Origin: Dolomedes plantarius
Taxonomy: Eukaryota; Arthropoda; Arachnida; Araneae; Dolomedidae
Length of the DNA stretch: 64,000 nt
Assembly: GCA_907164885.2 (NCBI GenBank)
Contig: OU015495.1
Span: forward strand, 207,829,901-207,893,900
Direction of reading: 5' to 3'
Below are positions 8,448 to 10,166 of the stretch, piece by piece; the first letter of the stretch is position 1; every line of letters begins with the position of its first letter. A program made the position numbers and the translations under genes. Below the pieces are notes generated by a model. It was not told where the DNA came from. It saw nothing but the letters and a program-made list of their open reading frames with translations, and searched no databases.

Positions 8448-8695
8448 TAACCACCGTTTGCAGCAACAACGTGGGTCAGTCTGAGGACAAAATTCGCAGA
8501 CGCCCGTGCAAACATTTCAGTTTGAATGTCCTGACTAGCAGCAGAGATGTATTGTTCCAGTTTATCTACAGTTTGTCGATTGTGACGATACACCTAGTCT
8601 TTTAAGTACCCCAAAGAAAAAAATCGCATGGTGTCAAATCTGGCGAATAGGGAGGCCAATCCATGCCACTTTGCGTATGCTTCTTGGTTTGAAAA
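8448..8695 (-). pseudogene. Mariner-type (Tc/mariner superfamily) transposase C-terminal fragment
   Basis: Minus-strand frames encode the residue of PDLTPCDFFLWGYLKD, containing the third catalytic Asp region, and then HNRQTVDKLEQYISAA...ANGG, the usual C-terminal tail of this group. The same segment is the core of the complete short element at 42711-43338, which supplies the correct order of parts. It starts abruptly at 8448, against the Ginger fragment, and runs into a (TA)n tract at 8699. Its terminal arm lies at 10167-10351, on the far side of the inverted segment. Confidence 0.8.
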
Positions 8696-8698
8696 TAT

Positions 8699-8804
8699 CA
8701 TATATATATATATATATATATATATATATATATATATATATATATATATATATATATATATATATATATATATATATATATATATATATATATATATATA
8801 TATT
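8699..8804. repeat. (TA)n microsatellite
   Basis: About 100 bp of pure TA between the mariner fragment and the Ginger terminus at about 8805. Confidence 0.97.
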
Positions 8805-9327
8805 ACTGTGAAAGACCAAAATCTGGAAAATGTCGACATTCGCCTGCGAATAGCACCATTCACATAGTCGCTTTATGTATGTCCGAAATCTTTGCTAAAT
8901 ATCCTTATTTGTTACTTACATCGGCGAATGTCGACATTCACCATGCACTGATGGTAAATGTTGAATAAAAATATTTTTGTTACGTTTTTAAATCATACTT
9001 TATTATTATAACATATTATGATATACGTCAAAGTAGGAGAATGCTTAAGTAACAGCACATGTAAAGAAACTGTTGAACTTAACAGTACAATCTAAATGAG
9101 AAACGAAAAATAACACCAATAATAAACTTAATTATGGGATCGACGTTATACAATCTTATTTTATTGCAACAACTTAAACAGTTATGACACTTTGAATTGC
9201 ACATGAGTCCCTTGCTTTTACAACTGCATTTAGTCGTGGAATAAATACTCTTTTTGCAATGACAGCGTGTATAGGCTTGCCCTCCACTTCTCGAATTAGT
9301 TGTAGCTACTTCTCTCAGTGAAATTTC
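8805..9327 (-). mobile_element. Terminal non-coding region of the Ginger-like transposon
   Basis: It begins ACTGTGAAAGACCAAAATC, the counterpart of the terminus at 8038. Repeated palindromic pieces of GGCGAATGTCGACATTC occur at about 8847-8870 and 8921-8942. In the present arrangement the two ends are direct repeats. They become inverted repeats only if the segment 8448-10166 is turned round. Confidence 0.75.
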
Positions 9328-10166
9328 TTAAGAAGAATTCTCATCTATGGAAAGTAACTTTTCTTTACAAATTATGAACTGATTACGGGTATAAAGCTGC
9401 TTGATGGTACCATTTTTGTTTGTAAATTTGTAAAAGCCGGAGTCTTCTATTCCAACAACAACCACCAGCATATTTCGGGCAACTGTACGACCACGGTCGA
9501 CATCAGGGACTTGTATTCGTACGCTATCACCAATTTGAGCAGGTGAAAATTTTCTTTTTGAGGTTCGTAACATTTTCGTTGCTTGCAGTAGAAGATTCTC
9601 TTTCACGGCCGCTCTTTTTATAGAAATAAACTCGTGTTGTTCGGTCAGTGCTTGATATGAAGACGTGGTAGGTTGCAACTCCTCTTCAATATTTCTCTTT
9701 GGAAAATCTTTTTCCGTATTGCCAGTGCTCAAATTTTCTTTAAAAGTATTAACAATTTCTTCGAGCTGTTCTCCGGTTTCAATATTTGCAATTTGTTCCG
9801 AGGGAAAGGTGACGATGCTATGCCTCTTTTTGGTTTAACCCCAAACAGGGCTTCATAAGGACTTTGGCGTATTCCTTCGTGGTATGTAGTGTTCTTGGCA
9901 AATTGAACAAAAGGACAGACCATCTGACCATTTATTTGTATCGTTGTCGTTCATCCACGCATTTAACATATCCTGTATATCCTTATTGGCCCTTTCAACT
10001 GAGCCTTGTGTTTGACTATGACGAGGCTTTCCATGAACTATCTTAACATCTTTCTACATAGCGCATAGTTCGGATATGCCTTGATTACTGAATTCCCTAC
10101 CATTATCAGAATGCAATATAGCTGGGGCACCAAATATTATGAATATTTGAAGAAGGTGATGAAAAC
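9328..10166 (-). pseudogene. Ginger/KRBA2-like integrase, second half, broken
   Basis: Read from 10166 leftwards: FGAPAILHSDNGREF with the second catalytic Asp, a TAG near 10055, then KIVHGKPRHSQTQGSVERAN with the catalytic Glu. The usual C-terminal region of the family follows (YHEGIRQSPYEALFG at about 9870-9830). After a frameshift near 9800-9730 comes a basic/aromatic domain with VGDSVRI-like (IGDSVRIQVPDVDRGR) and LYTRNQF motifs, ending at TAA 9328-9330. The DDE integrase would cut and join transposon ends. The start of this piece (HHLLQIF at 10160) follows directly on the AEE that ends the plus-strand fragment at 8447. The two are halves of one gene separated by an inversion. Several stops and frameshifts make it inactive. 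Confidence 0.85.

What the first reader, a model, noticed from the sequence alone, without database searches (positions are those of the whole stretch)
8448..10166. A 1.7-kb inversion splits two transposons at once
At 8447/8448 the first half of a Ginger-type integrase (plus strand, ending ...AEE) joins the inside of a mariner-type element. At 10166/10167 the second half of the same integrase (minus strand, starting at the next residues) joins the arm of the same mariner-type element. Turning 8448-10166 round would do three things together: make the integrase frame continuous, put the two Ginger termini (8038 and 8805) in inverted orientation, and place mariner interior next to its arm exactly as in the intact copy at 42711-43338. 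One event explains all three. I saw a short shared AAAAC/GAAGAA-type sequence at the junctions, which would fit end joining with microhomology.
Basis: partly seen in the sequence, partly recalled or inferred. Interest (0 to 1): 0.85.

Follow-up and report, generated by a model that had tools for sequence, protein, structure and literature searches.

The report
Small inversion through two dead transposons
A 1.7-kb piece of an animal chromosome appears to have been flipped by ordinary break-and-rejoin repair, cutting through two neighbouring dead transposons at once; it is a clean example of a common kind of event.

Summary
Two transposon remnants are each cut in two with their halves on opposite strands: a Ginger2-like (KRBA2-type integrase) deletion derivative and a fold-back mariner MITE. 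Turning the middle segment round mends both. The best boundaries are 8448-10160, not 10166. Genome copies settle the order for the integrase element: 34 of 39 other copies read through the restored junction, 0 of 39 carry the window's junction. All 39 other MITE copies scored (the best of 1759 candidates) have the uninterrupted layout. The 23-base pattern of the left junction has one exact hit in the 2.78-Gb genome, the window itself; its five 3-mismatch hits are not chimeras. So this is one local inversion, not a spreading chimeric transposon.

Two breaks and inverted end joining explain it best. No reads were available, and junction 2 was not searched genome-wide. Known kind of event, low interest.

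The parts
8036..8447 (+). 5' part of the integrase element (terminus, 5' region, integrase up to ...AEE)
   Evidence: 40 scored long matches including the window, the others 88-93%; family terminus (T)GTTACCGTGAAAGACC read
8446..8449 (.). Junction 1: integrase GAAGAA joined to MITE TAACCACCG, 2-bp overlap AA (8446-8447)
   Evidence: One exact 23-base hit in the genome; 39 of 39 other scored matches end within 7 bp of the junction, 38 on the MITE side and 1 on the integrase side
8448..8687 (-). MITE interior (loop), end of a mariner-type transposase reading frame
   Evidence: 89.7% to 42904-43155; Araneus transposase relatives
8688..8695 (+). TTTGAAAA, first 8 bp of the MITE's otherwise missing second arm
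   Evidence: 12 of 12 fetched copies read TTTGAAAAC here; the intact window copy reads TTTAAAAAC
8695..8803 (.). (AT)n tract between the two elements
8801..10160 (-). 3' part of the integrase element (HLLQIF... to the Cys-rich C-terminus and the 3' terminus), inverted
   Evidence: Continuous with the 5' part after turning in 34 of 39 other copies
10159..10161 (.). Junction 2: integrase GGTGAT joined to MITE GAAAACATTG, 2-bp overlap AT (10159-10160)
   Evidence: 0 of 64 fetched loci span it; whole-genome search did not complete
10161..10351 (+). MITE arm ending in the terminal inverted repeat TTTTTGGGACACTCGG
   Evidence: 91.7% to 42903-42686; continuous with the interior after turning, one 4-nt gap
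10352..10391 (.). (TA)n flank of the MITE
42711..43338 (+). Intact fold-back MITE copy of the same family, used as reference
   Evidence: 39 of 39 other scored copies (best of 1759 first-look candidates) align to it nearly full length

Best explanation
A local inversion of 8448-10160. Shown from copies: in the usual order the two integrase halves are continuous, and the MITE interior is continuous with its arm; the window has the segment between a point in the integrase gene and the arm-loop boundary of the MITE turned round, with 11 nt lost in all. Inferred: both elements had inserted in one (TA)n tract; two breaks arose, one in the integrase gene after codon AEE and one at the MITE's arm-loop boundary; the piece was rejoined the wrong way round by non-homologous end joining. 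Neither transposase need have acted, as both breaks are inside the elements and not at their ends.
For: Single alignments through the restored integrase junction in 34 of 39 other copies (24 of 27; 10 of 12), e.g. 1845 bp at 89% in L006. Copies read GAAGAA-GTAGCGT-ATCACC, so the window lacks 7 nt; this number was noted from protein relatives before the copies were aligned. The restored MITE aligns to the consensus of 13 copies (12 fetched plus the intact window copy) with one 4-nt gap at the break. Left junction with one exact hit genome-wide. Inverted termini restored.
Against: The MITE's second arm is missing and needs a separate event. The arm at 10161-10351 cannot be assigned to left or right: 10208 and 10258 are left-type, 10244 right-type, summed log-odds 0.11, where 13 left arms score 3.9 to 13.1 and 13 right arms -0.7 to -15.4. 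GG at 8686-8687 is CC in 13 of 13 other copies. 5 of 39 copies do not span the restored junction (L011, L014, L017, L038, L039) and were not examined further. No reads were seen. Junction 2 was not searched genome-wide.
Confidence: 0.87

Rival explanations
1. Mis-assembly: the segment was placed in the wrong orientation in the assembly.
For: Both elements are repeats (888 and 1759 first-look candidates, 40 scored each), with (TA)n tracts beside them.
Against: The junctions join unlike sequences and lose 11 nt; orientation errors usually switch inside long repeats (general knowledge). The locus lies inside a 216.7-Mb contig.
Confidence: 0.06
2. Replication template switching, not two breaks, made the same inverted structure.
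For: 2-bp overlaps at both junctions; fold-back DNA and AT tracts can stall forks (general knowledge).
Against: No duplicated or templated insert at either junction; a net deletion is the plainer end-joining pattern.
Confidence: 0.15
3. No inversion of the MITE: the 3' integrase part with (AT)n lies inside the MITE's right arm, flanked by a TGAAAA direct repeat (8690-8695, 10160-10165), and the left arm was lost separately.
For: TGAAAA at both sides; interior and arm have the order and strand of the intact copy's right side; base 10244 is right-arm type.
Against: It leaves the complementarity of the two integrase halves (7 nt missing) to chance. The repeat is expected anyway because both arms begin with (T)GAAAAC. 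Bases 10208 and 10258 are left-arm type.
Confidence: 0.05
4. An old chimeric transposon that spreads as a unit.
For: None found. Five pattern hits with 3 mismatches exist besides the exact one, against two for the backwards control.
Against: None of those five holds integrase sequence; one (L061) holds MITE interior, four match neither element. 39 of 39 other scored matches end at the junction. 0 of 64 fetched loci span either junction.
Confidence: 0.01

Closest known systems
Inversions made by non-homologous end joining of two breaks (named as an origin of rearrangements in PMC2775673, passages seen)
   Same: Breaks in unlike sequence, inverted rejoining, small deletions
   Different: Both breaks fall inside multi-copy transposons, so order and losses can be read without an outgroup
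Galileo inversions of Drosophila by ectopic recombination (PMC2775673, passages seen)
   Same: Foldback-like elements at inversion breakpoints
   Different: There, two homologous copies recombine and become chimeric with exchanged target duplications; here the two elements are unrelated
Alternative transposition inversions of maize Ac/fAc (PMC8225341, abstract and outline seen)
   Same: Transposons involved in inversions
   Different: There the inversions come from transposition; here both breaks are internal to the elements
Human-chimpanzee ultramicro inversions (PMC3227671, abstract and outline seen)
   Same: Small inversions, denser near transposable elements
   Different: Those are 5-125 bp; this is 1.7 kb

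Membership tests
Ginger2/TDD transposons (features as in PMC2836005, passages seen) | 5' termini TGTNR | tested here: met
   Read from the 14 rows that show both ends: GTTACC in 14 of 14 left ends, preceded by T in 11; GGTAAC in 12 of 14 right ends, followed by A in 11 of the 14. The outer T/A could also be flank. The window copy is mutated (TGATACC, TATTACT)
Ginger2/TDD transposons (features as in PMC2836005, passages seen) | 4-bp target site duplication in AT-rich RTATAY | tested here: inconclusive
   By eye exact in 2 of those 14 rows (L016 TACA, L026 TATA); many sites lie in TA-rich repeats. The other 14 of 28 rows gave no usable pair of ends
Ginger2/TDD transposons (features as in PMC2836005, passages seen) | DDE integrase core | tested here: met
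   Joined 54-residue piece hits PF00665 at 3.8e-6, 27.5 bits, below the curated cut-off of 32.6; D19, D78 and E115 invariant in 14 aligned sequences, the query included
Ginger2/TDD transposons (features as in PMC2836005, passages seen) | H2C2 zinc finger | tested here: inconclusive
   PF17921 in 1 of 4 near relatives scanned, 21.3 bits, below the cut-off of 25.5; precomputed for 15 of the 120 listed relatives; the window copy keeps only the CC half
Ginger2/TDD transposons (features as in PMC2836005, passages seen) | Lack of GPY/F and YPYY motifs | not tested
   No test made
IS3EU (features as in PMC10045372, passages seen) | TA..TA termini | tested here: not met
   The bases outside TACC..GGTA are constant (GT in 14 of 14 left ends, AC in 12 of 14 right ends), so the element reaches beyond TA..TA
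Mariner/Tc1 MITE | TA target and terminal inverted repeats | tested here: met
   Consensus of 13 copies TATA-CCGGGTGTCCC...GGGACACCCGG-TATA; about 190-bp inverted arms
Mariner/Tc1 MITE | Derived from a mariner-type transposase | tested here: met
   Interior, read through its frameshift, gives SGMDWPPYSPDLTPCDFFLWGYLKD...; the six best of 70 matches are Araneus ventricosus proteins, most labelled 'Tc1-like transposase DDE domain' by a source. Pfam gave no hit for a 29-residue piece or for P0123

The most novel reading that the evidence does not exclude
Fold-back MITEs of this family are themselves break points: the long inverted arms extrude a hairpin, which is cut at the arm-loop boundary, and the free ends join nearby breaks. 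In this copy both arm-loop boundaries are damaged (break at one, truncation 8 bp past the other), and another copy found in passing, L061, also starts at the arm-loop boundary with unrelated DNA before it. The family (1759 first-look candidates) would then be a genome-wide source of small inversions.
Probability: 0.12. Interest if true: 0.5.

Novelty: new member of a known kind. Interest (0 to 1): 0.2.

Why it matters
Two unrelated repeats with many copies act as an internal ruler: they give ancestral order, breakpoints to within 2 bp and net loss without an outgroup genome. Done genome-wide, this would let one count small inversions in a transposon-rich genome and test whether fold-back MITEs break more often at the arm-loop boundary. 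I identified no host gene touched by this locus (only transposon and repeat sequence was examined between 8036 and 10391).

Tried and rejected
Rejected: spreading chimeric transposon. Rejected: IS3EU for the integrase element. Unresolved: left or right identity of the arm.

Led nowhere: Rfam on the window, 0 matches; phage collection, no match; viral contigs, 2 stretches matched a pattern but none encodes a relative; Pfam on 7 typed pieces, hits for 2 of 7; Pfam on the Cys-rich tail, no hit. The own-genome search for junction 2 and for other copies with the truncated second arm did not complete. Papers: passages of PMC10045372, PMC5753468, PMC2836005, PMC7068900 and PMC2775673, abstract and outline of PMC3227671 and PMC8225341; all else only as search listings.

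Full report
What is there. The window lies in a 2.78-Gb genome of 390 contigs, in a 216.7-Mb contig. The three best integrase relatives are unnamed; named ones among the best 20 include spiders (Araneus, Trichonephila, Argiope, Stegodyphus), scorpions (Centruroides), wasps and a frog. The six best relatives of the MITE's transposase remnant are from the spider Araneus. So the host is probably an arachnid, which is inference. At 8036-10391 two transposon remnants are interleaved. The first is an integrase element: its 5' part is on the plus strand at 8036-8447, its 3' part on the minus strand at 8801-10160. The second is a mariner-type MITE with long inverted arms: interior at 8448-8687, one arm at 10161-10351.

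Is it real and beyond chance. The interior matches 42904-43155 and the arm matches 42903-42686 of the intact copy, on opposite strands. Turned round, they give one 470-bp alignment. The integrase halves end and begin where 117 of 118 scored relatives have only three residues between them. A rough Monte Carlo, with uniform breakpoints and cut-offs chosen after seeing the data, puts the joint coincidence near 5e-5. The element's two ends lie in the same direction and become inverted after turning; their similarity score is 42 against at most 17 in 300 random stretches.

Genome copies of the integrase element. The 410-bp 5' part has 42 matches in the genome: 40 long ones, the window included, and 2 short ones; 40 of 888 first-look candidates were scored. 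The long matches run over the query's internal deletion point, so the scored copies are a non-autonomous family. I fetched the 39 long copies other than the window. 34 of 39 align through the restored junction (24 of 27, 10 of 12); L011, L014, L017, L038 and L039 do not and were not examined further. None of the 39 carries junction 1. 26 of 39 cover both termini on one strand, a lower bound because some loci were cut short.

Genome copies of the MITE and of the junctions. For the MITE, 40 of 1759 first-look candidates were scored, which favours complete copies; all 40, the intact window copy included, align nearly full length, the others at 91-94%. The 23-base pattern of junction 1 has one exact hit, the window. 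Five more hits have 3 mismatches, against two for the backwards control; I fetched all five. None holds integrase sequence, four match neither element, and one (L061) holds MITE interior. In a 200-bp search with 40 of 1970 candidates scored, 39 of 39 others end within 7 bp of the junction, 38 on the MITE side and 1 on the integrase side. Over all 64 fetched loci other than the window's own, none spans junction 1 or junction 2. A genome-wide search for junction 2 did not complete.

Breakpoints. Integrase copies read GCTGAAGAA-GTAGCGT-ATCACC by majority; the window lacks 7 nt against 22 of the 24 spanning copies and 4 nt against the other two, L005 and L012. The losses of about 7 nt and about 4 nt were written down from protein relatives before the copies were aligned. 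The MITE consensus reads GGTGGTTA-TTAT-GAAAACATTG; the window lacks TTAT. Since AA at junction 1 and AT at junction 2 fit either element, the loss can also be written as 11 nt from the integrase element and 0 from the MITE; the net loss is 11 nt either way. Overlaps of 2 bp are little more than chance gives (estimate, no call), so they do not by themselves show microhomology-driven joining.

How it arose. The MITE consensus is flanked by TA repeats, and Ginger2 elements are reported to prefer RTATAY (PMC2836005, passages seen). The simplest history is that both inserted in one (TA)n tract, the MITE lost most of one arm, and two breaks, one in the integrase gene and one at the MITE's arm-loop boundary, were rejoined with the piece turned round. 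The order and the losses are shown by copies; the shared target, the order of events and the two-break mechanism are inferred. Because both breaks are inside the elements, transposition or recombination between copies is not needed.

What does not fit neatly. The MITE keeps only 8 bp (TTTGAAAA, 8688-8695) of its second arm before the (AT)n tract; the inversion does not explain this. GG at 8686-8687 is CC in 13 of 13 other copies. The remaining arm has two left-type bases (10208, 10258) and one right-type base (10244), and two private-looking ones (10334, 10348) that cancel; its score of 0.11 lies outside the 13 left arms (3.9 to 13.1) and just outside the 13 right arms (-0.7 to -15.4), so it cannot be assigned. 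A direct repeat TGAAAA flanks the segment 8696-10159, which would fit an insertion, but both arms begin with this sequence in the family, so it is expected anyway.

Classification. The integrase element looks like Ginger2: TGTNR ends and a DDE core are met, an H2C2 finger and a 4-bp target duplication are inconclusive, and the absence of GPY/F and YPYY was not tested. I therefore call it Ginger2-like. IS3EU does not fit its ends. The MITE is a fold-back derivative of a mariner-type element related to Araneus copies.

Verdict. It is a small inversion of a known kind, unusually well resolved.

Noticed in passing
16251-17969 (minus): Open reading frame of 572 codons with a Mutator-like transposase domain (PF20700, 1.9e-61).
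   Followed up: partly
52073-53259 (plus): Tc1-type transposase (HTH_Tnp_Tc3_2) in two overlapping frames.
   Followed up: partly
62665-63030 (minus): Fragment of a reverse transcriptase (RVT_2, 7.7e-18); RVT_2 is typical of Copia elements (recalled).
   Followed up: partly
25722-26490: 111-bp tandem repeat, 6.9 copies at 95%, open in frames on both strands.
   Followed up: no
8036-8210 and protein P0014: The 5' region of the integrase element, read in another frame, is 68% identical over 41 residues to the start of an Argiope bruennichi gene model, so that model probably includes transposon 5' sequence.
   Followed up: partly
L043:5512-5705: A lone MITE arm of about 190 bp upstream of the window.
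   Followed up: no
8686-8695: The MITE's second arm is cut off after 8 bp by the (AT)n tract; not explained by the inversion.
   Followed up: partly
L061:106-223: Another MITE copy that begins at the same arm-loop boundary with unrelated DNA before it; found only because it resembles junction 1 by chance.
   Followed up: no
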